NCBI GenBank assembly: GCA_938017795.1
Contig: CALIJZ010000018.1
Coordinates: 1 to 54,150 of the forward strand
DNA length: 54,150 bases
Reading direction: 5' to 3'
Source of the DNA: an uncultured Bacteriovoracaceae bacterium
GTDB taxonomy: Bacteria > Bdellovibrionota > Bacteriovoracia > Bacteriovoracales > Bacteriovoracaceae
Shown here: one piece after another, positions 13,239 to 31,209 of the stretch
Layout of the letters: each line of letters begins with the position of its first letter
How positions within the stretch are numbered: position 1 is the first letter of the stretch
Made by a program: the position numbers and the translations under genes
Notes under the pieces: model-generated
What the model was told of the DNA's origin: nothing
What the model saw: the letters and a program-made list of their open reading frames with translations, nothing else
Databases searched by the model: none

Positions 13239-13685
13239 TTACTCATCTAAATTATAAGAAATATAATCAACTTCTTTGAGCCAATTCATACTTTCATATA
13301 ATTTCTGAGCATTGAAATTATATGAACCTGTTTTTAGAGTTAATCCTTTACAGTTCAAATCAGCCTTACCAAACTTTCCAGCTTGCTTAAGAAGCATCTT
13401 GGCTACTCCTAATCTTCTAAATTTTTCTTTAACAAATAAATCATTTAATATCCATTGTCTTTTCAGACTAATAGATGAGAAACATGGATAGAGTTGGACG
13501 AAACCGGCCATGACTTCATCAGAATTTACTATAAAAATGACGGACTCATTTCGAACTAATCTATCAGATAAAAATTCTCTACACTTCAATTCATTTGAGA
13601 CTTGCTTATAAAATCCACGATATAAATTAAAGCAACCTGTTAATTGATCTAAATCATCACTCGTTGCTCTTTTTATTTCAAGCAT
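13239..13685 (-). CDS. GNAT-family N-acetyltransferase (last gene of hydrazine-type operon)
   Basis: A 148-residue protein with GNAT topology: an N-terminal IKRATSDDLDQL strand-helix, and an acetyl-CoA-binding motif A VKEKFRRLGVAKMLL (R-x-x-G-x-A) near residue 95, followed by NFNAQKLYESMNW. The start at 13685 has AAGGAGAG upstream and overlaps the EamA gene by 8 nt. It is sixth and last in the operon that begins with the cupin-MetRS gene. GNAT enzymes next to reactive small-molecule pathways often tailor the product or acetylate it for self-protection. Which applies here is inference. Confidence 0.75.
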   Translation of the reverse strand: MLEIKRATSDDLDQLTGCFNLYRGFYKQVSNELKCREFLSDRLVRNESVIFIVNSDEVMAGFVQLYPCFSSISLKRQWILNDLFVKEKFRRLGVAKMLLKQAGKFGKADLNCKGLTLKTGSYNFNAQKLYESMNWLKEVDYISYNLDE

Positions 13686-14520
13686 ATTGTCTCTCCTTCT
13701 TAAAATAAACAAACAAGGTATAAAGTCCGATTGTAAGAATTGATAATATATGTTGAGGATTTAAAATGGTATTTAATCCCCATATTTCTATAGGAATAAA
13801 TAATATAATACAAATGAATGTTAGAAGTTCTGTAAAAACCACTGAATGCTTTCTGTATAGCTTTAATGTATACATATAAATCCAAAACATTATAAAACCA
13901 GAAAATGTTGCGATAAAGACATCCACTAATGGAATAACCTTATAGTTACCTTGCTTAAAAAATCCAAGAAATATTCCACCTAACACAAGTGAAATACCAG
14001 GAACAATACAGGTCACGGCAAGATTTTCTGATTTCCCAGACTTACTCAAAAGTATGAAACCGATTGAAATAATGAATGTGCCACCTAAAGCAAATCCATA
14101 ACCAATGAGGTTTTCTGTATCTTCTTTAAAGTATAAAACATGCAATAGAAGTAAAATAAATGCTCCTAATGCATAAAGAGTTAAACCTTTTATTTTCCTA
14201 AGAGAAATCAATGAAAAAAATATCAAAAAAATCACATCAAACTTAAAAAGTACTGCAACTGTTGTTGCAAAAACATATTTGTATGAAGTGATCATTAAAC
14301 CTATGCCAAGTCCAGCAATAAGAATTCGTATCAATTGCAACTTAGTCTTATTAGGGACAAGACTATAGTTATTTTTCTTTGCGAGATAAATTGCCATAAA
14401 AATACAACCTAAGCCTCTAAATACTAAGGTTGCTTCTGTGGGCATCTCAAGCATTGCTAATTTCTTTAAAACTCCCATATTAATGGTATGTAAACTTAAA
14501 TATAGTAGTATCTCCATCAT
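13678..14520 (-). CDS. EamA/DMT-superfamily membrane transporter
   Basis: About 280 residues of highly hydrophobic sequence with roughly ten predicted transmembrane helices and a two-repeat arrangement, as in DMT/EamA exporters of amino acids and metabolites. The ATG at 14520 shares its A with the upstream TGA (TGATG coupling). An upstream GTG at 14526 is an alternative. As the only transporter in the operon it is the natural candidate to export the pathway product, which is inference from context. Helices in the central part (GLGIGLMITSY, GYGFALGGTF) are glycine-rich. Confidence 0.75.
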   Translation of the reverse strand: MMEILLYLSLHTINMGVLKKLAMLEMPTEATLVFRGLGCIFMAIYLAKKNNYSLVPNKTKLQLIRILIAGLGIGLMITSYKYVFATTVAVLFKFDVIFLIFFSLISLRKIKGLTLYALGAFILLLLHVLYFKEDTENLIGYGFALGGTFIISIGFILLSKSGKSENLAVTCIVPGISLVLGGIFLGFFKQGNYKVIPLVDVFIATFSGFIMFWIYMYTLKLYRKHSVVFTELLTFICIILFIPIEIWGLNTILNPQHILSILTIGLYTLFVYFKKERQYA

Positions 14521-15155
14521 CAGCACACCACCGTCACTTCTTCATAAGAAATACAATCAAGATCAACTTCAAAGTTATTCTTGATCATCCCTGCGTACTT
14601 TTGGGTTAAGATTTCTAAAGCTCTTGAGCCGTATTGCTCAAAATCAAGTTTTGAAATAACTACTTTTTCTAAGGATTTATAGTTAGTACTGTGCCAGCCA
14701 AGATCATTGGAAAAGAATTTGTAACCAAGCTTTTCCATGCTTGCTATTCGGAGTGAATTAGCTGTCATCGTTCCTAAGATTGTTTTAATTCCCCAATCTT
14801 TAGCAATTGAAAAAAACATGAGTCGTAATATTGAATTAAACCCTAGTCCTGTATAATTTAAATCAATTGCTGCTTTACTTAAAACAATGACAGGAAATGG
14901 AATTGCTCCAAAGTTCCAAGGACATTCGAGTTTCTGTTCAACCAAATTAATATCACTGATTATCTCTGCTCTCATAGTTGATATCAACCTCTTTTCATTG
15001 AAAATCCCAAGAACAATTGATTGATCATCTGATTTATTCCAAAAAATACCATCATCATGAACCTCAACTCCTTTAGCATCGAAATATGCCTTTTTCCTAA
15101 GTTCATTAACTTGACTTGAATAAGTCTTATCTAATACTCTAATTTGATATTGCAT
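14520..15155 (-). CDS. GNAT-fold N-acyltransferase-like protein (FeeM/autoinducer-synthase-like)
   Basis: A 211-residue protein starting at 15155 (GGAGAA upstream; overlaps the N-hydroxylase gene by 17 nt). Features resemble the GNAT superfamily branch of LuxI and FeeM-type N-acyl amino acid synthases. There is an early R-K-K-A-Y-F segment, then LGIFNEKRLISTMRAE, a long gap, and AAIDLNYTGLGFNSILRLMF followed by GTMTANSLRIASMEKLGYKFF. It probably transfers an acyl group from an acyl donor to an amino or hydrazino group. Donor and acceptor are unknown; acylation of a hydrazino acid made by the upstream enzymes is the simplest hypothesis. Confidence 0.55.
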   Translation of the reverse strand: MQYQIRVLDKTYSSQVNELRKKAYFDAKGVEVHDDGIFWNKSDDQSIVLGIFNEKRLISTMRAEIISDINLVEQKLECPWNFGAIPFPVIVLSKAAIDLNYTGLGFNSILRLMFFSIAKDWGIKTILGTMTANSLRIASMEKLGYKFFSNDLGWHSTNYKSLEKVVISKLDFEQYGSRALEILTQKYAGMIKNNFEVDLDCISYEEVTVVC

Positions 15156-16434
15156 AAATATTCTCCATTTTTTTTTGCAGTAATCCATATAATATTTTAT
15201 CTGCCAAACTTCCTAAACTACTTAAATTTGAAAACCCCGGTCCATTATTAAGTCCTGAAATCATTGGCAAAAATATTTTATAATTAATTTTTTTGATAGC
15301 TAAATCTGAGCCCATTTGAGTCTCGAGATTTCTATCACTTAATTCCCCTAGACTTTCTTGTAACTCATCTTTTAAATCTTCACTTAATTTAGATTTCAAT
15401 AATCCAACTTTCTGAAAACCAGTAGCCCATATGACACGATTGTATGTGAAGGTCTTGTTTTTATCACGCAAGGAAACTATCACTCTATTGTTTATCTCAG
15501 TTGAAAACTCAGCAAATCCTTTCAGAATATTCAAACTAGCACTTTGACTTAATTCGTTCATTGCATCAACTGAATATACACCTAAGTCTGTATGCTTTAT
15601 AAACGATCGCTTTTCTAGTAAGCTTAACTCTTCCCAATGACCATCCTTTGCATTTGTATAAACTTTATTTTCAAAATAACTTTCTCCCCGTGACAAAATT
15701 GTTCCAGACGGAGTCAATATATTTATTTCAATTCCCTTATCTGCATAACGTTGGTTGATATCCAATGCTATTGTTGCTGAGTTTTCTCCACCACCAATAA
15801 TCAGAACTTTTTCATTTTCTTTAAAATTTGTTTTTGATTTCCAATATGAGTTAATATCAAATATTCTCTTTGATCCAAATGGGATTTTTGCAGTGGATTC
15901 ACCTGGACCCGTTAGCATTAATGAACTAGCTTCAATACTAGTTCTTTGATGATTGTTTAAGTATGTAATCTTAAGGCTTTCTCCTTTGTTTGAAATTTCA
16001 TCAAGCTCTCCTTGGTGGATTTTTACAGCTTCAGAAACAAGTGAGAAACCATACTTTAAATAATTCGCCCATTCAGAATGAGTTGGATTTGGTTTACCTC
16101 TGTCTATCCATTGCGCGTAACGTCCACTACTTACAAGATAAGTATCCCAGGAAAATCTTCTCATCTCTTGGTTAAGTAAATGATCTCTTTCATCACCAAA
16201 AAATTGAGATTGATAAGGAAACCCGATATCTTTCTGTGGTGATGTTCCTAATCTTAACCGACCATTAGTAAATCCGTTTTTCCCTGTCCAATTTGCAGCA
16301 ATTTCTCTTCTTTCAATAATATGAAAAATAGGTATTTCAAATTTAAAGAATTTATTTAAAACAAAAGCTTTTGCCACAACAGCAAGTGCTTTTGGCCCTG
16401 CTCCAATAATTACAAAGTTAGATTGTGATTGCAT
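15139..16434 (-). CDS. MbtG-like amino acid N-hydroxylase (lysine/ornithine N-monooxygenase family)
   Basis: A 431-residue flavoprotein with GAGPKA (residues 11-16) for FAD, a GGGENSA NADPH site in the middle, and WATGF near the C-terminal third. The block GRLRLGTSPQKDIGFPYQS and the N-terminal GAGPKALAVVAKA closely resemble mycobacterial MbtG rather than IucD/PvdA. Family members hydroxylate the side-chain amine of lysine or ornithine using NADPH and O2. No NRPS or NIS siderophore genes are adjacent. Instead it sits with a cupin-MetRS protein and a DAO-type oxidase, as in hydrazine-forming pathways (Spb38, Tri26), so N6-hydroxylysine is the likely product. It overlaps both neighbours (17 nt each) and has GGAGAA before ATG. 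Confidence 0.82.
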   Translation of the reverse strand: MQSQSNFVIIGAGPKALAVVAKAFVLNKFFKFEIPIFHIIERREIAANWTGKNGFTNGRLRLGTSPQKDIGFPYQSQFFGDERDHLLNQEMRRFSWDTYLVSSGRYAQWIDRGKPNPTHSEWANYLKYGFSLVSEAVKIHQGELDEISNKGESLKITYLNNHQRTSIEASSLMLTGPGESTAKIPFGSKRIFDINSYWKSKTNFKENEKVLIIGGGENSATIALDINQRYADKGIEINILTPSGTILSRGESYFENKVYTNAKDGHWEELSLLEKRSFIKHTDLGVYSVDAMNELSQSASLNILKGFAEFSTEINNRVIVSLRDKNKTFTYNRVIWATGFQKVGLLKSKLSEDLKDELQESLGELSDRNLETQMGSDLAIKKINYKIFLPMISGLNNGPGFSNLSSLGSLADKILYGLLQKKMENIYAISN

Positions 16435-17461
16435 ATTCTTCTCCTGTTTTTCTTGATTCCATAAAGGCTTCAGTTACTAGTTTATCTGCAAGATAAGGAG
16501 AAAATTTAAATGCTCCACCTCCCCAACCAGCTAATACATATAAATCTTGTCTTCCACATACTTCTCCTGAAAATCCTTTATTATCTTTTAAATATATATC
16601 TTGAACCGGCAAACTCTCTTCTGAGATTTTATGAGTAAATGAAAACCTGCTTCTTGAGTAATTTTCTACATTTTTTCTTGGGTTTCTACTTCCAGATTTA
16701 ACACCAACTTTGAATAAACCCTCTATTCCTTGAAAGCTCTGAGTTCCGTAAAATATATTATTATAATCAAAGAAATTAGGAATCTTGAACTGGCTTTGTG
16801 ATTCTACTTTAAAAGTCGTAATTGCTTTGCTATCAACTATGCCTTTTATACATATTTCGGGTAATAAGTCTTGAACACCTAAACCTGTTGTTACAAATAC
16901 TTTTGCAGTAAAAAATACTCCTCCTTGAGTGTACACACGATATTTCCCACTAGCATCCAATGCTATATCCTGAACAGTTGTATTTTCTAAAACTTTGTCA
17001 TTCTCATTTTTAAAATGCTTGAAAATTTTAAATATATACTCTTTCACACAAATACTAGCACCACTTTCTTCATATATTCCTGCTTCATTTTCCTTAAAAT
17101 TCATTCCCTTAAATTTTTCTTTGAGCTCACGACTTCCTAAAACACTAAAATGATTTCTATCAACTTGAGAAACAATTCTTTGTGGAATAATACTAAGAGA
17201 GCCTACTTTTTTTATGTTAAGTCCTATTTCATTTTGAAGTAAAAAAAATTCTTGTTGGCTAAACTTTGCTGCAGTCTGATCTCTTTTTCTTTGATGAAAC
17301 ACTCTTGTCATTCCACCACTATAGGAACTTACTCCTCCTGCAATCTTCCCTTTTTCTAAAACTAAAATGTTTCTAACTCCTTTTTTCTTTAATGATCTGA
17401 AGACACTTGCTCCGAAACATCCTCCACCTATAATGATTGCTTCAAATTGCCTATTGTTCAT
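16418..17461 (-). CDS. DAO-family FAD-dependent oxidoreductase (Spb39/Tri27-like)
   Basis: A 347-residue D-amino-acid-oxidase/glycine-oxidase type flavoprotein: N-terminal IIIGGGCFGAS dinucleotide site (residues about 9-19), GGVSSYSGGMTR near residue 42, and a C-terminal GWGGGAFKFSP typical of the family. These enzymes oxidise C-N bonds next to carboxylates or secondary amines. In s56-p1 and triacsin biosynthesis a DAO-type enzyme cleaves the lysine-glycine hydrazine to release hydrazinoacetate. The same gene trio is present here, so that role is proposed. GAGGT precedes the ATG. It overlaps the cupin-MetRS gene by 11 nt and the hydroxylase by 17 nt. Confidence 0.8.
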   Translation of the reverse strand: MNNRQFEAIIIGGGCFGASVFRSLKKKGVRNILVLEKGKIAGGVSSYSGGMTRVFHQRKRDQTAAKFSQQEFFLLQNEIGLNIKKVGSLSIIPQRIVSQVDRNHFSVLGSRELKEKFKGMNFKENEAGIYEESGASICVKEYIFKIFKHFKNENDKVLENTTVQDIALDASGKYRVYTQGGVFFTAKVFVTTGLGVQDLLPEICIKGIVDSKAITTFKVESQSQFKIPNFFDYNNIFYGTQSFQGIEGLFKVGVKSGSRNPRKNVENYSRSRFSFTHKISEESLPVQDIYLKDNKGFSGEVCGRQDLYVLAGWGGGAFKFSPYLADKLVTEAFMESRKTGEEYAITI

Positions 17462-19178
17462 TTTCTACCTCTCTTAAATCCAAGCTCCAAGTGTTAGTAA
17501 AATCATTTTTATTAATTAGTCCTGGCATCATAGGAAATAAAACCATTTTTATAAGTGGAACAAAGTTAGCAACTTGTTCTACTTTCGCTCCATTGTCATT
17601 AAAATAATCCAGGAAATCATTAATGAGATCTAGACTCTGCTGAGCATATTGATTTAAAGAAAACTCCTTACCAAGACTATTTTCAATTCTGATAATATGA
17701 TTAACCGTTTTTTGATAAAAACGCTGAAAGTCTTTTGATCTTAAATCAACTCTTTCAATTTTTCTCTCACCAATAGATTGTATTGTTTCTAATTTATAAC
17801 GAATATCTTTATAGAATTTATTAAAATCATCTAAATCAAAATTACCAATACTCCTCTCGGATCGAGTTAAGGCCAGATAGAATCTCAAATAATTCAACTT
17901 TTTTTTATCGAAATCACTAACCCATAATGCATGTCCTCTAGAAGTTGAAAATTTCTCTTCCTGTAGGTAATAAAAGTCATTTATAATAACTTTGCTCGGT
18001 AATTTATCATCCTCTTTGAGTGCAAAGAAAATTGCAGGTATTAATATTAAATAATAAAAAGCATTATCAATCCCAAAGCAATAAACAAGCTCATCAGTAT
18101 CTTTATTAAACTTTTCTCTTTGTAATAAGATACCAAAAGCCATCTCACACCATACATGTATATTATCTACTCCGATATTGCCCGGAGTACTAAGAAGAAA
18201 TGGCTCTAAATTCTCTCTCCATATTTGAACTCTTTTATACACCTCACCATTTAAGTTTAAACCGTCATGATACTCTTTTAGCTCATCTCTAAATTCTTGT
18301 AGATTTAATACTGAAGTTGTAAATTTTTTAACATTCATATCAGTGAAGTTTTTTGCTGGTCCTACATAACCACAAACCTCGCAGCATTGCCCTATTGTTT
18401 TACTTTCACATTGTGGACACTCACCTTCTAGGTAAGCTTCAAACTTATAATGATTATCAAAGGGTAATTGTGTAACAACTTGACTAACTTCTTTAGAATT
18501 AATTAATAATTCAAATTTTCCTTTCACATATTTTTGATAAGTAATATCTCTTGAGGGATAGGTGAAATCATCTAGTTCAATAGCAGCTTGATCTAAGTCA
18601 TTCTTAATTAAAGTTCTAAAATCCTCTATTAAGGTTTTGAAAGGTTTTTCTAAACTTTGTGCCAATCTATAAGTATAACTTTGATGATCATCTGTTCCTG
18701 TATAGTGAGCTACATTTTCACCGCGTAACAGTTTATATCTTTTCAAAATATCAGCTGAAAGATAGGGGCCTGATAAATGTCCTAAATGAAGACGACCATT
18801 AGGAGTTGGAGGAGCTGATAGAATTAAAGTGTTTAACTTATTATTTTCTTCATTAACTCGTGAATAAACCGAGAAAAACTCTAGAACCTCGACTCCATCA
18901 TTTATAATTATATGTTCTTCAAATGGATGAATAATCAGTTGATCATTCTCCTTTAGAGAAATCTCTATTCCATCAATTATTGCTATCGCTTTTCCAGTTT
19001 TGATGAGAAAAATTTCTGTCTCATAATGTGTATGTAATAGTGTTGAGCCACCAACTTGAACTCTACAATAGCTTGGATAAAACGACGCACCATGAGAATT
19101 AAGTGGATCTGATTCACCAAAGCAGTCTATCCCGTAATTATTTTTCAAATCTTGCTCTTTATATTTTAGTAATTTCAA
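17451..19178 (-). CDS. Cupin-MetRS fusion, putative hydrazine synthetase (Spb40/Tri28-like)
   Basis: A 575-residue two-domain protein. Residues 1-105 form a cupin: the metal motif G43-x5-H49-x-H51-x3-E55-x6-G62 fits exactly, with H89 and N93 in motif 2. Residues about 115-575 resemble class I methionyl-tRNA synthetase: HLGH at 131-134, GTDDH at 161-165, a zinc-knuckle-like set (C254, C257, C265/C266, C269) and KFSTS at 409-413. It is not the housekeeping MetRS, given the fused cupin and the operon. The architecture matches synthetases that activate an amino acid and join it to N-hydroxylysine through an N-N bond. Start is TTG with GGAGGT six nt upstream. First gene of a six-gene overlapping operon, divergent from lysR. 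Confidence 0.85.
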   Translation of the reverse strand: MKLLKYKEQDLKNNYGIDCFGESDPLNSHGASFYPSYCRVQVGGSTLLHTHYETEIFLIKTGKAIAIIDGIEISLKENDQLIIHPFEEHIIINDGVEVLEFFSVYSRVNEENNKLNTLILSAPPTPNGRLHLGHLSGPYLSADILKRYKLLRGENVAHYTGTDDHQSYTYRLAQSLEKPFKTLIEDFRTLIKNDLDQAAIELDDFTYPSRDITYQKYVKGKFELLINSKEVSQVVTQLPFDNHYKFEAYLEGECPQCESKTIGQCCEVCGYVGPAKNFTDMNVKKFTTSVLNLQEFRDELKEYHDGLNLNGEVYKRVQIWRENLEPFLLSTPGNIGVDNIHVWCEMAFGILLQREKFNKDTDELVYCFGIDNAFYYLILIPAIFFALKEDDKLPSKVIINDFYYLQEEKFSTSRGHALWVSDFDKKKLNYLRFYLALTRSERSIGNFDLDDFNKFYKDIRYKLETIQSIGERKIERVDLRSKDFQRFYQKTVNHIIRIENSLGKEFSLNQYAQQSLDLINDFLDYFNDNGAKVEQVANFVPLIKMVLFPMMPGLINKNDFTNTWSLDLREVENEQ

Positions 19179-19213
19179 GTTCTTACCTCCATTAGTTCAA
19201 ATGATTCAACCAA

Positions 19214-19242
19214 TTTATGGATAACTTACTTCTTGAGCTCAA
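19214..19242 (-). promoter_or_regulatory. Predicted promoter of the hydrazine-type operon
   Basis: On the minus strand TTGAGC (19242-19237) is followed after 17 bp by CATAAA (19219-19214). The -35 is contributed by the palindrome that also serves the divergent lysR promoter. The -10 is a weak match to consensus, as expected for an activator-dependent promoter. The leader to the TTG start (19178) is about 30 nt and includes GGAGGT. Confidence 0.45.
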
Positions 19243-19243
19243 G
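19232..19243. promoter_or_regulatory. Palindromic candidate LysR operator
   Basis: CTTGAGCTCAAG is a perfect 12-bp palindrome lying between the two divergent -10 boxes and overlapping both predicted -35 hexamers. It sits in the 115-bp gap between lysR and the cupin-MetRS gene. A dimeric or tetrameric LysR protein bound here could repress its own gene and control the operon. Confidence 0.5.
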
Positions 19244-19261
19244 TGCGTAAAATGATATAAA
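19233..19261 (+). promoter_or_regulatory. Predicted promoter of the lysR gene
   Basis: TTGAGC (19233-19238), a 17-bp spacer and TATAAA (19256-19261), with an extended TGA just before the -10. The predicted transcript start near 19268 leaves a leader of about 26 nt containing AAGAGA before the ATG at 19294. The palindrome 19232-19243 overlaps the -35. Confidence 0.55.
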
Positions 19262-19293
19262 ATCAGTAAAATTGATGAAAAAAAGAGAACGAT

Positions 19294-20190
19294 ATGAAGA
19301 TTGATCAACTCAATTACTTTTTAGAAACAGCAAAACATGAACATATTGGAAAGGCATCAAAGATTTTAGGAATTTCTCCAAGTGCTATTAGCCATAGTAT
19401 TTCTTCACTAGAAGTAGAAATTGGTCGATCACTTTTTGAAAAAAAAGGAAAAAATATCTTTCTAACTTCTCATGGTAAATATTTTGCTGAAAACATTGGA
19501 GAAATATTAGGAAAATTAAATACTTTAAAAGATGAAGTCACTGCAGATAATATTGATCATCAAGGTCATTACAAAATCGTAGCAACGCATGTTCTATCTG
19601 ATCTTTTAGTTACGCCACACTTGAGTAAAATTTTATCAAAATATCCGAAAGTAAGTGCTGAGGTGTATTCGCTGAGATCTGCTAATGTAATCAAAGAACT
19701 TATCAATGGTCATAACGACCTTGGGTTTTGTTTTTGTCCACAGGATAATATTAAAATTGAATCAGAGGTTTTACTTCGTGGGAAAATGCATCTCTTTGTA
19801 AAGAAAGGTCACCCACTACTTAAAATGTCTAGAAAAGAACAATTAAAGAACCTTAAAGAATATTCTTTCACTCTACCAAAGTCTTTCCAAGGAATTGAAA
19901 ATTGTGAAAAGCATCCGGCTTTAGCTGAGTTTGATATTCAAAGTTCTCCTCAACTTCTGCATGATAATGTATCTGTTTGCATTCAAGCTTTAAAAAATAG
20001 CGAAATGTTTTCTTTATTCCCTGATTATTATCAAAATTTTTACCCTGAGGAGATTGTTCCTATTCTTGAAAAGGAATGTGGTCCTACTTATAATATTTCT
20101 GCAATATGGCCATCAAATCGCATTCTTACAAAATTTTTGAAGCAATTAATTCAAGATATCAAAAAGCATTTATCGAGAAAAGTTCATTGA
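19294..20190 (+). CDS. LysR-family transcriptional regulator, divergent from the hydrazine-type operon
   Basis: A 298-residue protein with the LysR winged helix at residues 1-60 (YFLETAKHEHIGKASKILGI, then SPSAISHSISSLEVEIG, then LFEKKGKNIFLTSHG). A periplasmic-binding-protein-like effector domain (about 90-295) follows. LysR proteins usually sense a small molecule related to the pathway they control and are often transcribed divergently from their target, as here. The likely target is the six-gene operon starting at 19178. The effector is unknown; a pathway intermediate is a reasonable guess. Confidence 0.88.
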   Translation: MKIDQLNYFLETAKHEHIGKASKILGISPSAISHSISSLEVEIGRSLFEKKGKNIFLTSHGKYFAENIGEILGKLNTLKDEVTADNIDHQGHYKIVATHVLSDLLVTPHLSKILSKYPKVSAEVYSLRSANVIKELINGHNDLGFCFCPQDNIKIESEVLLRGKMHLFVKKGHPLLKMSRKEQLKNLKEYSFTLPKSFQGIENCEKHPALAEFDIQSSPQLLHDNVSVCIQALKNSEMFSLFPDYYQNFYPEEIVPILEKECGPTYNISAIWPSNRILTKFLKQLIQDIKKHLSRKVH

Positions 20191-20240: not shown

Positions 20241-21506
20241 TCAAAAAACAAACAATTCATTCCAGCTCGTCGTATATCTAGCTGACTTAAACTCCCTATT
20301 CATCCTCCAGGCCTTATCATCAATTCCACAGGCCAATGACTTAATCGTTCCATCACCTTCTCTATAGTTAATTAAATCTAGAGTGTTCATAAGCTTTTCT
20401 TCTATCGCTGAATCTCCTCGCTCTAGTAGATCGATTTGATAAGTTTGTTGATCCATAAAACTTGATACTCTTACTCCTGCCTTTTTATACTCATAGCCTT
20501 CTTGGTAATGCTTATCAATGAGTTCATGAGCAATTTCTATTAAATACAGAGTATTAGAAGTTGGATTAACAAGTAACTTCTCTCCTAACATATAATATTG
20601 AGCAATATTCTTAAAAGAATTAGTACGAGCAAAAACAGATAACTTCAAGCATTTAGAATCTTGCTGCCTCAACTTGGCAGCAGCATTTGTTACATAATTA
20701 GCGATAGCAGTTTTAAGATGAGTCTTACTAAAGACTGAGTCTCCGAAAGTTCTAGAACACATAATTTCTTTTTTCTTCACAAAAGGCTCATTGAAAACAA
20801 AACATTGTATGCCTTCAAGTTCAAGTTTCATCCGAAGTCCCAAGATTGAAAAATTCTTTCTAATTAATGAATCATTTTTATATTCTTTTAAGTCGATTCC
20901 TCTCTTAATTCCTAGAGCTCGCATCTTTTGCGCATTTTTGATCCCAACTCCCCATAGATCTTCAATAGGAGTTCTCCTTAAAGCTTCATTAATATATATT
21001 TCATTATCCAGCACAACTACCCCTTGTGCTTTTTTTGATTTCTTGGCAAGTCGATTGGCAACCTTTGCTAAAACTTTAGTAGGTGCAATTCCAACACTCA
21101 CAGGTATTCCAATATGCTTGAGAATAATTTCTTTAATTTTCCGACCGAAAGATTCTGGATCTTTTATTCCAGATAAATTAATGAAAGCTTCATCAACTGA
21201 ATAAACCTCAACTTCAGGACAATACTTCTTTAAAGTCGCCATGACTCTATCTGAAATATTTGTATAGAGTGAAAAGTTAGTAGAAAAAACACTCACTTTT
21301 TTATCAGTACAAAGTTTTTTTATTTTAAAGTATGGCTCCCCCATTTTAATACCAAGAGCTTTGGCTTCATTAGTTCTAGCAATAGCACATCCATCATTAT
21401 TAGAAAGAACGACAACAGGCCTATCTTTTAAATCAGGACGAAATATTCTCTCACATGAACAATAAAAAGAATTACAATCAACAAGACCGATTAAGTTTTC
21501 AAACAA
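20241..21506 (-). CDS. umuC: DNA polymerase V catalytic subunit UmuC (Y-family)
   Basis: The 421-residue protein begins with the Y-family palm signature GLVDCNSFYCSCERIF, then SNNDGCAIARTNEAK in the finger region and the catalytic SVDEAF near residue 100. It has the length of UmuC (422 in E. coli). It performs error-prone translesion synthesis after DNA damage, activated by processed UmuD and RecA. Its start overlaps umuD by 8 nt, so the pair is co-transcribed and translationally coupled. Confidence 0.95.
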   Translation of the reverse strand: MFENLIGLVDCNSFYCSCERIFRPDLKDRPVVVLSNNDGCAIARTNEAKALGIKMGEPYFKIKKLCTDKKVSVFSTNFSLYTNISDRVMATLKKYCPEVEVYSVDEAFINLSGIKDPESFGRKIKEIILKHIGIPVSVGIAPTKVLAKVANRLAKKSKKAQGVVVLDNEIYINEALRRTPIEDLWGVGIKNAQKMRALGIKRGIDLKEYKNDSLIRKNFSILGLRMKLELEGIQCFVFNEPFVKKKEIMCSRTFGDSVFSKTHLKTAIANYVTNAAAKLRQQDSKCLKLSVFARTNSFKNIAQYYMLGEKLLVNPTSNTLYLIEIAHELIDKHYQEGYEYKKAGVRVSSFMDQQTYQIDLLERGDSAIEEKLMNTLDLINYREGDGTIKSLACGIDDKAWRMNREFKSARYTTSWNELFVF

Positions 21507-21924
21507 AATCTCTGACCAATCCTATGATAACACCAAAGACTTCTAGCTCATCATCTTCAGTGACAATGATATCAATATATTTAGAATTAAATGAATGCAG
21601 TATTTTCTTGTTAGACTTTATATGTATTTGCTTACAAAGAGGATTACCGTTAAAAAATACCGCCAGAATAGATTGATCTAGAACTGGCAAGGATCGATCT
21701 ACGACTAAAATATCATCGTTTTTAATATCTGGAAGCATAGAATCACCGCTGGCCCTTACAAAGAAAGTAGACTCTTTATTACTCATGAACTTTTCATCTA
21801 GCGATAAATAACTATCAACATAGTCATCACTGATACCAAAGAGACCACAAGCAAGTTCTCCGGAATACAAAGGTAGCCAGTTCTTTTTAATCTCACTTCT
21901 AGTAGGTTTAGGTATGATTTCCAT
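21499..21924 (-). CDS. umuD: UmuD-type self-cleaving S24 peptidase
   Basis: A 141-residue protein matching UmuD in length and layout. The self-cleavage site is Cys26-Gly27 (ELACGLFG), the nucleophile is Ser62 in GDSM, and the general base is Lys98 in NPLCKQI. The C-terminal DELEVFGVIIGLV resembles UmuD's. There is no HTH, which separates it from LexA. RecA-stimulated cleavage would yield UmuD', the partner of UmuC. No ribosome binding site precedes the ATG, and the predicted -10 lies 9 nt upstream, so the mRNA may be nearly leaderless. A palindrome in the promoter suggests SOS-type repression. Confidence 0.93.
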   Translation of the reverse strand: MEIIPKPTRSEIKKNWLPLYSGELACGLFGISDDYVDSYLSLDEKFMSNKESTFFVRASGDSMLPDIKNDDILVVDRSLPVLDQSILAVFFNGNPLCKQIHIKSNKKILHSFNSKYIDIIVTEDDELEVFGVIIGLVRDFV

Positions 21925-22807: not shown

Positions 22808-23797
22808 TTACATTTTTATTAAAACAGACCCAACCTTCTGAGCACTTTCAACATATTGGGAAGCTTCCATAATCTCTTCAAAAGAGTAGGTCCTATCAAT
22901 ATGAGGAGTATAAAGACCATTTTTAAGAAGCTCAGCAAACTCAATCATTAGTTCTCCATCTATTTTGGGAATATCAAAGACAACTTTCTGCCTTCCATAA
23001 AACTTACTTCTTAGAATATAAAAAATATTTTCGTAAAACGGACCAAGTTCACTTGAATAATAGAGTCCATCAGGTTTTAAGACTTTTTTTACTTTAGAAA
23101 ATCTAGACTTTCCAACAGCATCTATGACAACATGAAACTTACGATCCAAGTTAGTAAAGTCTACTTTGGTATAATCTATAACTTCTTGGGCCCCCCAACT
23201 TTTAACTAAATCAAAATGTTCAGCTCGAGCAGTTGCAGTAATAACTGCTCCTAGGTTTTTAGATAATTGTACAGCTGCTGAACCTATTGCTCCAGTGGCA
23301 CCATTGATTAAGATGGAAGTTCCTTTGCCAACCTTCAAGGATCGCAACCCATTTGATGCGTATGAGGCACCTTCACCTAAAGCTACACATTGTTCGTATG
23401 AAAAACCATTTGGAATAAGAGCAATTGGTCTATCCTGGCTTTTTGTGAAATATTCTGCATGAGTTTGATAATGATCACCATCAAACCCAAAAACCTTGTC
23501 ACCTACTTTAAATTTTGTAACATCGGGGCCAATCTCTTCAACAATTCCAGCAAACTCGCAGCCAGTGATGGCACACTTTGGCTTAAATAAACCAAAAATA
23601 ATTCTCGCAAACCAATAGGTTGCTCTTCGCATTTCTGTATCAGATCGATTAACGGTAGTTGCTTTAACTTTCACTAAGATCTCATCATTTTTAACAACAG
23701 GTTTAGGAACTAATTGAATACTTTGTGTCGAAGCAGGCCCATACGTTGGAGCTATAAAAGCACGCATTTTATTATTAACTTTCAATCCAACTCCCAT
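22808..23797 (-). CDS. Zinc-independent medium-chain dehydrogenase (quinone-oxidoreductase-like)
   Basis: A 329-residue MDR-superfamily protein. It has a GroES-like domain (TTVNRSDTEMRRA, ITGCEFAGIVEEIG, FKVGDKVFGF), a Rossmann segment INGATGAIGSAAVQL that binds NADPH, and a C-terminal YSFEEIMEASQYVESAQKVGSVLI. Catalytic and structural zinc cysteines are absent, so it fits the quinone oxidoreductase/enoyl reductase branch. The start is uncertain. The ATG at 23797 overlaps the carotenoid oxygenase gene by 23 nt; an internal TTG at 23785 preceded by GGAG or an ATG at 23767 could be the true start. Confidence 0.85.
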   Translation of the reverse strand: MGVGLKVNNKMRAFIAPTYGPASTQSIQLVPKPVVKNDEILVKVKATTVNRSDTEMRRATYWFARIIFGLFKPKCAITGCEFAGIVEEIGPDVTKFKVGDKVFGFDGDHYQTHAEYFTKSQDRPIALIPNGFSYEQCVALGEGASYASNGLRSLKVGKGTSILINGATGAIGSAAVQLSKNLGAVITATARAEHFDLVKSWGAQEVIDYTKVDFTNLDRKFHVVIDAVGKSRFSKVKKVLKPDGLYYSSELGPFYENIFYILRSKFYGRQKVVFDIPKIDGELMIEFAELLKNGLYTPHIDRTYSFEEIMEASQYVESAQKVGSVLIKM

Positions 23798-25190
23798 GAA
23801 ACGTTATTGGGATAGTTTGATCTAAATCAATCCTTGCAACAAAATCTAAATTCATAGAGTTCAATATAATATAAAAACTTTTATTTATATTACTATCAAA
23901 TACTAATGAAATAAGATATCCCTCATCTTCTTTACCTTGTTTTGTAAGTATTGGAACTGGCTCAGAGCTAATCTGACCTTTTGCAAATAGATATTTCATA
24001 ATCTCATTTTTATCACTAATTTTTATAATACTTGTTCTCAATATCCCATCGATATACTCTTCGCCTTGCATCCAGATAAAGGAGTATTTACTTCCTCCAA
24101 GGTGTTTAGAAATTCTTGGAAAATCACAAAATCCACTTCCACGCGAGCAAGTTTTAAAACTTTCATTATTAATATTTATTCTAGCTCGAAATAGTTGACC
24201 ATGTTCTAAACTATCTCTTTTACCCCAATTTAATTCAGTTCCATCTTTAAGGTTCTTAAAAACACTAAAATCATCGTGATGAATATAATCGACAACTATT
24301 TCATCTCCATCTTCAAATGCACCTGCAAAGTGAGTTGCAAGAAATGCATTGGTTTTAAACCTCTTTATTTTTTCAGGTTCATTAATTGGTACAACTATAA
24401 TTTCTGTTCCTCTCGCTTCGTCCCAATTCACCCAGTCAATGAAGTCTCCCCATGCCAACATCATTTTCACAATATTAAAAACTGCTGGAGCAATAAAGAA
24501 AATCAAAAAATTTTCTGTCACTATAAAGTCATGAATCATTACAGGCTTTTCTAACTCTGTAGATCCGAGATGGTGTATGTCATCATTATCTGGAAGACCA
24601 TAAAAATGAAGTTTGGTTACTTTTCCGTATTCTATACCAAAATTATATAATGACTTACGAGCGCAGTTATAATGTGGATGGGCCGAAAAAGTTCCTTTAA
24701 TAACTCCTTTAAAATCAGTAACAGTTTCCTTAGATAAGCTATTCTTGTTGATTTTAGTTGGTAAAGCACCTTCCATTAATGCATACAAATCATCTCTCCA
24801 GGGAACGACATGAGTATTAGCAGTATTTTTTCCTTTCCCTTTGAGACCATTTAAAAAACGAGACAACCACGGGGCCTTAGAGCCATATAAATTTCGCCCT
24901 AATTTTAACTCCTCTTCTAATTCAGAACTTTTAATAATTTTTGAAGCTGTATAAGCTTGAGAGTTTTCAAGTTTTAAAGCACTAAGAGCACCATCACCTT
25001 CAAAGATATGATTATATCGCTTCCCAAATTGCTCAAAAATACCGATTCCATTTCTAACAAGTATCCCATTTAAACAACTAGGAATCTCTCCGCTAACTTT
25101 TACTTGCTCAAAGTCTTGCTCTCTTTCAAGATTACTGAAAAATTTGATTGGAGAAGGAGGTAATTGGGAATTACTTGAACTTGATTTCAT
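23775..25190 (-). CDS. Carotenoid oxygenase (RPE65/apocarotenoid cleavage family)
   Basis: A 471-residue member of the iron(II) carotenoid cleavage dioxygenase family. The four His ligand contexts are recognisable in order: FSAHPHYN near residue 178, MIHDFIVTENF near 228, THFAGAFEDGDEIVVD near 295, and TFHGSW at the extreme C terminus. The N-terminal LVRNGIG...FEGDGALSAL is also typical. These enzymes split carotenoids or related alkenes with O2. The product (retinal or another apocarotenal) is not predictable. No ribosome binding site is visible. TATAAT sits 8 nt before the ATG, with no good -35. Confidence 0.88.
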   Translation of the reverse strand: MKSSSSNSQLPPSPIKFFSNLEREQDFEQVKVSGEIPSCLNGILVRNGIGIFEQFGKRYNHIFEGDGALSALKLENSQAYTASKIIKSSELEEELKLGRNLYGSKAPWLSRFLNGLKGKGKNTANTHVVPWRDDLYALMEGALPTKINKNSLSKETVTDFKGVIKGTFSAHPHYNCARKSLYNFGIEYGKVTKLHFYGLPDNDDIHHLGSTELEKPVMIHDFIVTENFLIFFIAPAVFNIVKMMLAWGDFIDWVNWDEARGTEIIVVPINEPEKIKRFKTNAFLATHFAGAFEDGDEIVVDYIHHDDFSVFKNLKDGTELNWGKRDSLEHGQLFRARININNESFKTCSRGSGFCDFPRISKHLGGSKYSFIWMQGEEYIDGILRTSIIKISDKNEIMKYLFAKGQISSEPVPILTKQGKEDEGYLISLVFDSNINKSFYIILNSMNLDFVARIDLDQTIPITFHGSWIES

Positions 25191-25339: not shown

Positions 25340-25969
25340 TTAAATATCTAATTCTTCCAATTCAAACATTACTTCATTTCTTCTCAGCATAGGAAGTGTA
25401 TAAGGTGGATTATAACCAGCATAAACATAGGTTGTGCTAACTGAATAGTTATTTTTGCCTTTAAGCCATTTTAATAATTCGATAGATTTCTTATCATTTC
25501 TAGCCGAGCTAAACCTCCCCGAAAACTTAATCGCTGCAACAATACGCTCAGGAACATTTATAATTTTAATTCTCGAATCGATAGGAGTTGGTAGATTCTT
25601 CAAAGTATATTTAGAGGGCATACTAAAAGACATTTTCATTTTATTATCACCAAGATCATCAATCAAAACAGGAGAAGTCATTTTAATCTTCTCACTTCTT
25701 TGAGCTAAAACAGGTGAAGTCATTTTAATTTTTTCTTTACTAGTGTTGTTTCCAAAAATATATCCTGCAAGAATTTTAAATGCACTTCCTCGAGAGTCTT
25801 CAATTGTACCGTTTATCTCGACCTCAGCTTTTATATAAGACTCATAAAGCCTAATTTCATTTTTTCCATCTTGAGCAATAACCTTATATTTTAAAGTTTC
25901 CGTATTAACCTCACCTAGAATAGAACATGAGAGAAAAAGTAGTATTAATGGAGAAAATCGAAACAACAT
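25340..25969 (-). CDS. SOUL-family haem-binding protein, probable lipoprotein
   Basis: A 209-residue protein with a short hydrophobic leader and a lipobox-like LFLSC (Cys15), followed by a SOUL domain. This includes YKVIAQDGKNEIRLYE, AFKILAGYIFGNNTSKEKIKMTSPV, a second K-I-K-M-T-S-P-V copy, and C-terminal YVYAGYNPPYTLPMLRRNEV. SOUL/HBP proteins bind haem or tetrapyrroles. Membrane anchoring places it in the envelope. AAAGG precedes the ATG. It lies about 150 nt downstream of the carotenoid oxygenase start region, on the same strand. Confidence 0.85.
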   Translation of the reverse strand: MLFRFSPLILLFLSCSILGEVNTETLKYKVIAQDGKNEIRLYESYIKAEVEINGTIEDSRGSAFKILAGYIFGNNTSKEKIKMTSPVLAQRSEKIKMTSPVLIDDLGDNKMKMSFSMPSKYTLKNLPTPIDSRIKIINVPERIVAAIKFSGRFSSARNDKKSIELLKWLKGKNNYSVSTTYVYAGYNPPYTLPMLRRNEVMFELEELDI

Positions 25970-30168: not shown

Positions 30169-31209
30169 ACGTCTTAACTTACCAGAATCAGTTTTAGAAA
30201 TTTTTTCTACAATTTTAACTTTTGAAATATTAAACCCAAGTACTTTGTTAATTTCTTCTAAATTTACTTCTACAAGACTTACAAGTTCTAGAATATATCC
30301 TGATCGTTCATCTTCAATGGCCTTTAAATAGTAAGAATATTCAGTTAAGCCTATATTCATGAGTGATATTTTTCTTTCTAATTCAAGTAGATTTACAAAT
30401 TTTGAATTTATTTTAACAAATGAGTCTACTCGTCCCTTTATTGATATTAATGTTGGTTCGTTCTCCTGAGCAATATCAGAAGTTTTAAAATAGCCTTTAT
30501 TATCACAAAATTCTTTATATTCTAAGAATTTTACATCTTTGGAACCAACAATCATTTTGTGCGAGAAATGAAAGTCCGATTTAATTTTCAGTCTATCTTG
30601 TTTATCAATCTTATAATCAATAAATGGCAGAATCTTAAAACCAACTTCATCTCGAGTTGATCTTGAAGTTGCTACTTGAGAACATAGTTCAGTGAGTCCA
30701 TATGTTTCAAAAAGAGGCCATCCTAAATCTATAAATTTTAATTTTAGCTCCCTCGATAGTCGAGCTCCTCCAACAAAGCAATATTCAAGTTTTGGATTTG
30801 GCTTTTGCTCACTCTTACATAGATCAAAGACTTGAGTGGGAACCAGGGAAAGATGTGTAATTTGGTTTTCCTTAAGATCAGTAGCAAGATTTTTCAAGTT
30901 CCACTTTTTTTGAATAAACTGAGATCCCGAAACTTGAGCTCTAAAAAATGCAGATAATGAGCCCATATAAAAATCTGGTAATACACATAAGATTTTTGAC
31001 TTCTTAGTTATATTGAAATTCTTACAAATCTCTAAAGCATGACCTCTCATGCTTTTTTGAGGTATAAAATAAATAATATCTTCAGCCTGATTACTCGTAC
31101 CGGAGCTTGCCATCACTAACAAATCGTTTAGGTTATATTTTTCAATATATTCTTGAATATACTTTGGAGTATTCTCATTTAAATCAGGACGAAGCTTTAT
31201 TAAATTCAC
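30163..31209 (-). CDS. menE: o-Succinylbenzoate-CoA ligase (short MenE)
   Basis: An AMP-forming acyl-CoA ligase with SSGTSNQAE (P-loop-like A3), FETYGLTELCSQ (A5) and a terminal KTDSGKL carrying the catalytic Lys (A10). It activates o-succinylbenzoate in menaquinone synthesis. The likely start is GTG at 31209, overlapping the menC TGA as GTGA with AAGG upstream, giving 348 residues. A TTG at 31227 is possible. It is about 100 residues shorter than E. coli MenE because the N-terminal segment before A3 is reduced. Last gene of the menFDHACE operon. Confidence 0.85.
   Translation of the reverse strand: MNLIKLRPDLNENTPKYIQEYIEKYNLNDLLVMASSGTSNQAEDIIYFIPQKSMRGHALEICKNFNITKKSKILCVLPDFYMGSLSAFFRAQVSGSQFIQKKWNLKNLATDLKENQITHLSLVPTQVFDLCKSEQKPNPKLEYCFVGGARLSRELKLKFIDLGWPLFETYGLTELCSQVATSRSTRDEVGFKILPFIDYKIDKQDRLKIKSDFHFSHKMIVGSKDVKFLEYKEFCDNKGYFKTSDIAQENEPTLISIKGRVDSFVKINSKFVNLLELERKISLMNIGLTEYSYYLKAIEDERSGYILELVSLVEVNLEEINKVLGFNISKVKIVEKISKTDSGKLRRL

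What the first reader, a model, noticed from the sequence alone, without database searches (positions are those of the whole stretch)
13239..20190. Candidate hydrazine (N-N bond) biosynthesis operon with acylation, export and LysR control
Seen: six tightly overlapping genes encode a cupin-MetRS fusion, a DAO-type flavoenzyme, an MbtG-like amine N-hydroxylase, a GNAT-fold acyltransferase-like protein, an EamA exporter and a GNAT acetyltransferase, with a divergent LysR regulator. Established: cupin-MetRS fusions (Spb40, Tri28) join N6-hydroxylysine to an amino acid through an N-N bond, with an N-hydroxylase (Spb38, Tri26) and a DAO-type enzyme (Spb39, Tri27) as partners in s56-p1 and triacsin biosynthesis. 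Inferred: this operon makes hydrazinoacetate or a related hydrazino acid, acylates it and exports it. The compact operon, apparently without NRPS or PKS genes and in a non-actinobacterium, looks like an undescribed minimal pathway.
Basis: partly seen in the sequence, partly recalled or inferred. Interest (0 to 1): 0.95.

Follow-up and report, generated by a model that had tools for sequence, protein, structure and literature searches.

The report
Compact operon for acylated hydrazines
A bacterium of the Bdellovibrio phylum carries a six-gene operon whose key enzyme belongs to the known family that joins two amino acids through a nitrogen-nitrogen bond, and the operon would likely cap the resulting hydrazine with an acyl group and export it, a pared-down cousin of pathways known from Streptomyces.

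The parts
17451..19178 (-). HS: cupin/MetRS-like hydrazine synthetase, 575 aa (TTG start)
   Evidence: Cupin_2 and tRNA-synt_1g; H49, H51, E55, H89, K409; PyrN C-terminal domain is best structural match; tree
17569..19178 (-). Within HS: approximate extent of cupin (residues about 31-107) and class-I synthetase core (117-536)
   Evidence: Domain ranges; boundaries approximate
16418..17461 (-). DAO-type FAD oxidase, 347 aa, predicted to cleave the N-N product
   Evidence: PF01266 79 bits; conserved between HS and NMO in 11 other loci; only 25.8 bits to the oxidase of a Streptomyces cassette
15139..16434 (-). NMO: lysine N6-hydroxylase of the 4d7e type, 431 aa
   Evidence: PF13434 50.6 bits; 4d7e L-Lys monooxygenase 250 bits over residues 7-416
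14520..15155 (-). GNAT1: FeeM/AHL-synthase-like acyltransferase, 211 aa (ORF listed from 15188; likely start 15155)
13678..14526 (-). EamA-like (drug/metabolite transporter) exporter, 282 aa
   Evidence: PF00892 19.9 bits, under cut-off; homologue in 11 of 11 syntenic loci; hydrophobic along its length
13239..13712 (-). GNAT2: small GNAT acetyltransferase, 157 aa (an in-frame ATG at 13685 would cut its overlap with EamA to 8 bases)
   Evidence: PF00583 50.9 bits; homologues beside HS in L036, L070, L078, L095
19294..20190 (+). Divergent LysR-type regulator, 298 aa
   Evidence: PF00126 and PF03466; divergent LysR homologue beside HS in 11 of 11 other loci
19179..19293 (.). Intergenic region with a perfect 12-bp palindrome at 19232-19243, possible LysR operator
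   Evidence: palindrome scan; not seen in the 10 relatives scanned

Best explanation
This is an operon for a cupin/MetRS-like hydrazine synthetase with its oxidase and amine-hydroxylase partners, and it most likely makes a small hydrazino acid that an unusual FeeM-like acyltransferase would cap with an acyl group before a predicted EamA-type exporter releases it. Predicted steps: (1) NMO hydroxylates L-lysine to N6-hydroxylysine. (2) The MetRS-like domain of HS adenylates a second amino acid (glycine is the default guess) and passes it to the hydroxylamine oxygen. (3) The zinc cupin rearranges that ester into an N-N bond. (4) DAO oxidatively cleaves the C-N bond on the lysine side, leaving a hydrazino acid such as hydrazinoacetate. 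(5) GNAT1 N-acylates it from acyl-CoA or acyl-ACP. (6) GNAT2 acetylates the product or protects the cell from it. (7) EamA exports it and LysR controls the operon. Shown here: gene content, enzyme families, catalytic residues, predicted folds, conserved gene order. Inferred: every substrate and product, and steps 4 to 7.
Against: No activity was tested. GNAT1's best structural scores are nearly tied with ordinary N-acetyltransferases (15.6 against 16.1), Foldseek ranks RimI first, a profile search of PDB sequences found no FeeM or AHL synthase, and the best Pfam E-value among family members is to a generic GNAT domain, PF13527 at 6.2e-5. DAO and both GNATs are not clearly homologous to those of annotated cassettes by BLASTP, so steps 4-6 are by analogy. 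GNAT1 relatives without HS exist. EamA is below Pfam's cut-off. The methyltransferase of 9 of 11 relatives and the C39 peptidase of 8 of 11 are missing in the window, so its product may differ.
Confidence: 0.6

Rival explanations
1. Same N-N chemistry, other cleavage side: DAO acts as Apy10 does, or does not cleave at all, so the hydrazine stays on the lysine-derived half, and GNAT1 acylates that compound.
For: Apy10, of the same oxidase family as Spb39 and Tri27, cleaves the C-alpha side (PMC11705231); the window's DAO is only distantly like the oxidases of the three annotated cassettes (best 25.8 bits).
Against: Apy9/Apy10 work on hydroxy-diaminobutyrate and alanine, whereas the window's NMO resembles a lysine hydroxylase, and the lysine pathways described in section 15 of the review release an alpha-hydrazino acid.
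Confidence: 0.2
2. The hydrazino acid itself is the weapon or metal binder; GNAT1 and GNAT2 are self-protection acetyltransferases and EamA a detoxifying exporter, so no acylated product is the goal.
For: GNATs and EamA pumps are common self-resistance genes (recalled); GNAT2 homologues lie near HS in four other loci that lack GNAT1; ordinary acetyltransferases score nearly as high as FeeM against GNAT1.
Against: GNAT1 is kept directly after NMO in 11 of 11 other loci, fused to NMO in one, which fits a pathway step better than a resistance gene; in dob a GNAT step is biosynthetic.
Confidence: 0.13
3. A hydroxamate (siderophore-like) pathway: NMO and a GNAT make N6-acyl-N6-hydroxylysine and the MetRS-like protein only joins such units by ester or amide bonds.
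For: N-hydroxylase plus GNAT is the usual hydroxamate pair (recalled).
Against: The complete cupin and HS residue set and PyrN as best structure; no Condensation domain in the genome; a DAO-type oxidase conserved between HS and NMO.
Confidence: 0.04
4. The fusion is a second methionyl-tRNA synthetase with a regulatory cupin.
For: Generic annotation: tRNA-synt_1g Pfam, 'methionyl-tRNA synthetase' names on some relatives.
Against: The genome has a separate MetRS on contig C78 with normal signatures; the fusion lacks the MetRS signatures, sits apart in the tree, and matches PyrN better than any MetRS.
Confidence: 0.01

Closest known systems
PyrN (pyrazomycin) and the cupin/MetRS-like hydrazine synthetases Spb40 and Tri28
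   Same: N-terminal zinc-cupin ligands, MetRS-like domain, activation lysine, domain order; best structural and best named sequence match is the PyrN domain
   Different: About 25% identical to the PyrN domain over 461 structurally aligned residues; separate subclade with P0002-P0005; one cysteine pair of the knuckle region absent in this clade; amino-acid partner unknown. Spb40 and Tri28 sequences were not obtained
Hydrazinoacetate cassettes of the triacsin / azaserine / dob type (annotated examples: S. lavendulae pSA3239, S. meliloti pSmeSM11b, S. hirsutus plasmid)
   Same: NMO, DAO-type oxidase, HS and a GNAT in one cluster (dob)
   Different: Only HS is clearly homologous by BLASTP (201-226 bits); NMO at most 34.7 bits, DAO 25.8, GNATs no significant match. 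Window has no AMP-binding, carrier-protein or C45-peptidase gene in the operon and uses an EamA-like rather than an MFS transporter
Actinopyridazinone (apy) and Pseudomonas orientalis (por) clusters
   Same: N-hydroxylase plus HS, with a DAO-type oxidase in apy; por is non-actinobacterial
   Different: Hydroxylate diaminobutyrate-type substrates rather than lysine; not compared by sequence here
FeeM N-acyl amino acid synthase and LuxI-type synthases (BjaI, RpaI)
   Different: 10-13% identity in those alignments; Pfam FeeM hit of the window protein below cut-off (18.7 against 27 bits); substrate unknown

Membership tests
Cupin/MetRS-like hydrazine synthetases | Cupin zinc ligands H, H, E, H with the essential Glu (PyrN H50, H52, E56, H90) | tested here: met
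   H49, H51, E55, H89; 33 of 33 rows; 118 of 118 cupin-bearing rows of 120
Cupin/MetRS-like hydrazine synthetases | ATP-site motifs of the MetRS-like domain (HxGH; lysine matching PyrN K458) | tested here: met
   H131, H134 and K409 in 120 of 120 rows
Cupin/MetRS-like hydrazine synthetases | Phylogenetic position apart from true MetRS | tested here: met
   73 rows, quick tree with SH-aLRT only; one long-branched MetRS row (L010) misplaced; PyrN, Spb40 and Tri28 not among the rows
Cupin/MetRS-like hydrazine synthetases | Fold closer to a proven family member than to MetRS | tested here: met
Cupin/MetRS-like hydrazine synthetases | ATP-dependent N-N bond formation | not testable with these tools
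   Needs an enzyme assay
Methionyl-tRNA synthetase | Signatures ALPYxNG, SDEHG, YVWFDAP, IGKDN as in the genome's own MetRS | tested here: not met
   Replaced in HS; present in the C78 protein
Triacsin/azaserine/dob hydrazinoacetate cassette | NMO, HS and DAO-type oxidase together | tested here: met
   NMO of another subfamily
Triacsin/azaserine/dob hydrazinoacetate cassette | AMP-binding enzyme, carrier protein and C45 peptidase in the cluster | tested here: not met
   None among the operon genes; nearest AMP-binding hit lies at 30607-31029, over 10 kb away; carrier protein and C45 peptidase judged from the operon's gene content only
FeeM / AHL-synthase acyltransferases | Pfam FeeM (PF21926) over its cut-off | tested here: not met
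   18.7 of 27 bits for the window protein; 9 of 10 family members hit at E up to 1, best 2.8e-4
FeeM / AHL-synthase acyltransferases | Fold and length of the acyl-synthase branch of GNATs | tested here: inconclusive
   FeeM first by Z, AHL synthases longest alignments, but other GNATs within 1 Z and RimI first in Foldseek
EamA transporters | PF00892 over cut-off | tested here: not met
   19.9 of 28.2 bits; two homologues in other loci also without a Pfam hit at 0.001; works-like claim rests on hydrophobicity and partial profile match

The most novel reading that the evidence does not exclude
A new class of exported small molecules, N-acyl hydrazino acids, made without NRPS or PKS by joining hydrazine-synthetase chemistry to a FeeM/LuxI-like acyltransferase. 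The LysR / acyltransferase / exporter part is a reusable module whose head-group enzymes are swapped (hydrazine synthetase trio in the window, a haem-oxygenase-like iron enzyme in a congener), so Bdellovibrionota and others may use acylated hydrazines and related head groups as signals or weapons.
Probability: 0.35. Interest if true: 0.8.

Novelty: new variant of a known kind. Interest (0 to 1): 0.62.

Why it matters
Known hydrazine-synthetase products (triacsins, azaserine, pyrazomycin, actinopyridazinones) come mostly from large actinobacterial clusters. A six-gene version that ends in one acyltransferase and one exporter would be a short, easily rebuilt route to acylated hydrazines, and would give a function to an acyltransferase family of at least 113 proteins, 112 of them without a Pfam label and the named ones called 'hypothetical protein'. 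It also points to N-N chemistry in Bdellovibrionota, for which the listings and passages I saw hold no report.

Tried and rejected
True MetRS for the 575-aa protein: rejected on signatures, tree and structure. G040 (L004, 96 bits) as a further HS in the phylum: set aside because the match starts at residue 117 and the row sits between MetRS and HS in the tree. A conserved operator: the window's 12-bp palindrome was not found in the 10 other LysR-HS intergenic stretches scanned, whose boundaries were approximate. Sequence link of GNAT1 to FeeM or LuxI chains in the PDB: none; best profile hit E 0.071 to an unrelated Argonaute-associated chain. GNATs of the three annotated cassettes as homologues of GNAT1 or GNAT2: best E 0.85. 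Reading the amino-acid partner from the pocket: the paper that defines the eight specificity residues (Matsuda 2024, ChemBioChem e202300838) was not among the library's search results and I did not read it, so no prediction was made. Host below phylum: not determined. The phylum rests on G209 contig C48 and G213 contig C5 having the lengths of NCGL01000102.1 (Bdellovibrio sp. 28-41-41) and JAEUWH010000110.1 (Bdellovibrionaceae) with equal match scores. Papers: PMC8664883 parts 1-4 of 7 read; PMC11705231 outline, section 15 in full and found passages; PMC13061610 section 8 and one found passage; PMC13274452, PMC11213898 and PMC12971057 found passages only; all others seen as search listings. 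No report of this operon type was found in searches, which cover open-licence PMC papers only; 2 of the 4 papers listed were not opened.
Full report
WHAT IS THERE. Six run on the minus strand; with the fourth protein started at 15155 the overlaps are 35, 7, 17, 17 and 11 bases, and LysR is divergent across 115 bases. Start 15155 is preferred because homologues begin there and GGAGA precedes it. G+C of the genes is 0.30-0.33, like the window (0.319). The window has no tRNA and no Rfam match at gathering scores. It is contig C18 of a 2.86-Mb genome, 94.8% complete. The phylum is Bdellovibrionota: two 'same phylum' genomes hold contigs equal in length and match scores to records named Bdellovibrio sp. 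28-41-41 and Bdellovibrionaceae bacterium.

PARTNERS. NMO matches one solved structure at E 0.001: 4d7e L-Lys monooxygenase, 250 bits. The N-hydroxylase of an annotated Streptomyces cassette matches 12 distinct solved amine N-hydroxylases, KtzI and MbtG among them, and not 4d7e, so the two routes use different N-hydroxylase subfamilies (direct BLASTP at most 34.7 bits, 20% identity). nbtG with pyrN made the N-N product in E. coli (PMC8664883), so such a pairing works. The DAO-type oxidase is only distantly like those of the three reference cassettes (best 25.8 bits, E 0.02). In s56-p1 biosynthesis this kind of enzyme releases hydrazinoacetate, but Apy10 cleaves the other side (PMC11705231), so the cleavage side stays open.

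CONSERVED OPERON. Besides the window, 11 loci carry HS-DAO-NMO-GNAT1 in this order with a divergent LysR next to HS: nine Bdellovibrionota genomes (G193, G209-G214, G238 split over two contigs, G296) and two named records, a deltaproteobacterium (L032) and a gammaproteobacterium (L033). In two (L032, L097) NMO is split over two overlapping ORFs, and in G212 NMO and GNAT1 are one protein. An EamA homologue is present in 11 of 11 (cut by the contig end in L102 and L105), beyond LysR in nine and downstream of GNAT1 in two (L100, L102), as in the window. Nine of 11 add a protein family, one member of which is a Pfam methyltransferase, downstream of GNAT1; eight have a C39-peptidase-like protein, fused to EamA in three. 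The window has neither in the operon. Of 13 genomes with an HS-type hit (368 searched), 10 including the window have GNAT1; G292, G294 and G040 do not. Of 11 genomes with a strong GNAT1 hit (220 bits or more), 10 have HS; the eleventh, G267, keeps EamA, a C39-like protein, the methyltransferase-like protein and a GNAT1 whose front is replaced by a foreign, transposase-looking stretch, with no LysR, HS, DAO or NMO hit in the 16 kb read: a remnant. Exact contig lengths join 28 of 113 GNAT1 proteins to one of 120 listed HS proteins (26 of 57 on contigs of 12 kb or more); lengths jittered by 3% gave 0.26 on average and 3 at most.

A SWAPPED HEAD GROUP. Weaker GNAT1 relatives occur without HS in 10 genomes (68-150 bits); five of these were read. 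In G001 (same genus as the window) and G208 the order is LysR, divergent, then a haem-oxygenase-like iron enzyme (PF14518, over cut-off in both), a GNAT1 relative (31% and 34% identical to the window's) and a hydrophobic protein that does not match the window's EamA by BLASTP. G183 and G196 have a neighbouring ATP-pyrophosphatase-like protein (Pfam hits weak, mostly under cut-off), and in G231 I saw no comparable partner. This suggests, without proving, that the acyltransferase branch serves different small head groups. None of the 36 other same-genus or same-family genomes shows a match across cupin and MetRS-like domain, so the hydrazine version is patchy and probably moves between lineages (inference).

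COMPARISON WITH THE KNOWN. The annotated cassettes on three plasmids and the dob pathway (PMC13061610 section 8) share the NMO, DAO, HS and GNAT logic; in dob a GNAT succinylates hydrazinoacetate before adenylation and carrier loading. The window stops after the acylation stage: no Condensation domain in the genome, three ketosynthase hits on other contigs, six AMP-binding hits of which one lies in the window but over 10 kb away. HS enzymes outside actinobacteria are already tabulated, so novelty lies in the operon type and its acyltransferase.

VERDICT. A real, conserved, apparently undescribed variant of a known kind of pathway. HS family membership: near certain. A hydrazino acid as intermediate: likely. 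An N-acyl hydrazino acid as exported product: plausible, about even odds. Amino-acid partner, cleavage side, acyl chain and biological role: open.

Noticed in passing
L123 5882-8674 (G001, same genus as the window) and L124 297-3387 (G208): LysR divergent from a haem-oxygenase-like iron enzyme (PF14518), a GNAT1 relative and a hydrophobic protein: possibly the same acyl/export module with another head-group enzyme.
   Followed up: partly
L122 5582-9219 (G267): Remnant cluster: EamA, C39-like protein, methyltransferase-like protein and a GNAT1 fused to a transposase-looking front part; LysR, HS, DAO and NMO not found in the stretch read.
   Followed up: partly
L097, L098, L099 (EamA ORFs of 444-467 aa): EamA-like exporter fused to a C39-peptidase-like domain, which stands alone in five other loci of this cluster.
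   Followed up: partly
L100 10411-12330 (G212): NMO and GNAT1 fused into one 639-aa protein, a hint that hydroxylation and acylation belong to one pathway.
   Followed up: partly
L032 7935-9430 and L097 5182-6559: NMO split over two overlapping ORFs in both loci; frame break or sequencing error not decided.
   Followed up: partly
L036, L070, L078, L095: Homologues of GNAT2 (32-43% identical) near HS and DAO in four loci from Gammaproteobacteria and Bacteroidota that lack GNAT1.
   Followed up: partly
L125 6829-8374 (G183) and L126 7454-8987 (G196): Distant GNAT1 relatives beside ATP-pyrophosphatase-like proteins with weak QueC / tRNA_Me_trans / Asn_synthase hits; unexplained pairing.
   Followed up: partly
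G000:C21:51234-51689: The same genome has a 493-aa frame with a FeeM domain over the Pfam cut-off (59.4 bits), separate from GNAT1.
   Followed up: no
window 20241-21924: UmuC-like polymerase and S24-peptidase (UmuD-like) pair directly beyond LysR.
   Followed up: no
window 23775-25190 and 25340-25969: RPE65-type carotenoid oxygenase (328 bits) and a SOUL haem-binding protein.
   Followed up: no
window 19232-19243: Perfect 12-bp palindrome between HS and LysR, not seen in relatives.
   Followed up: partly
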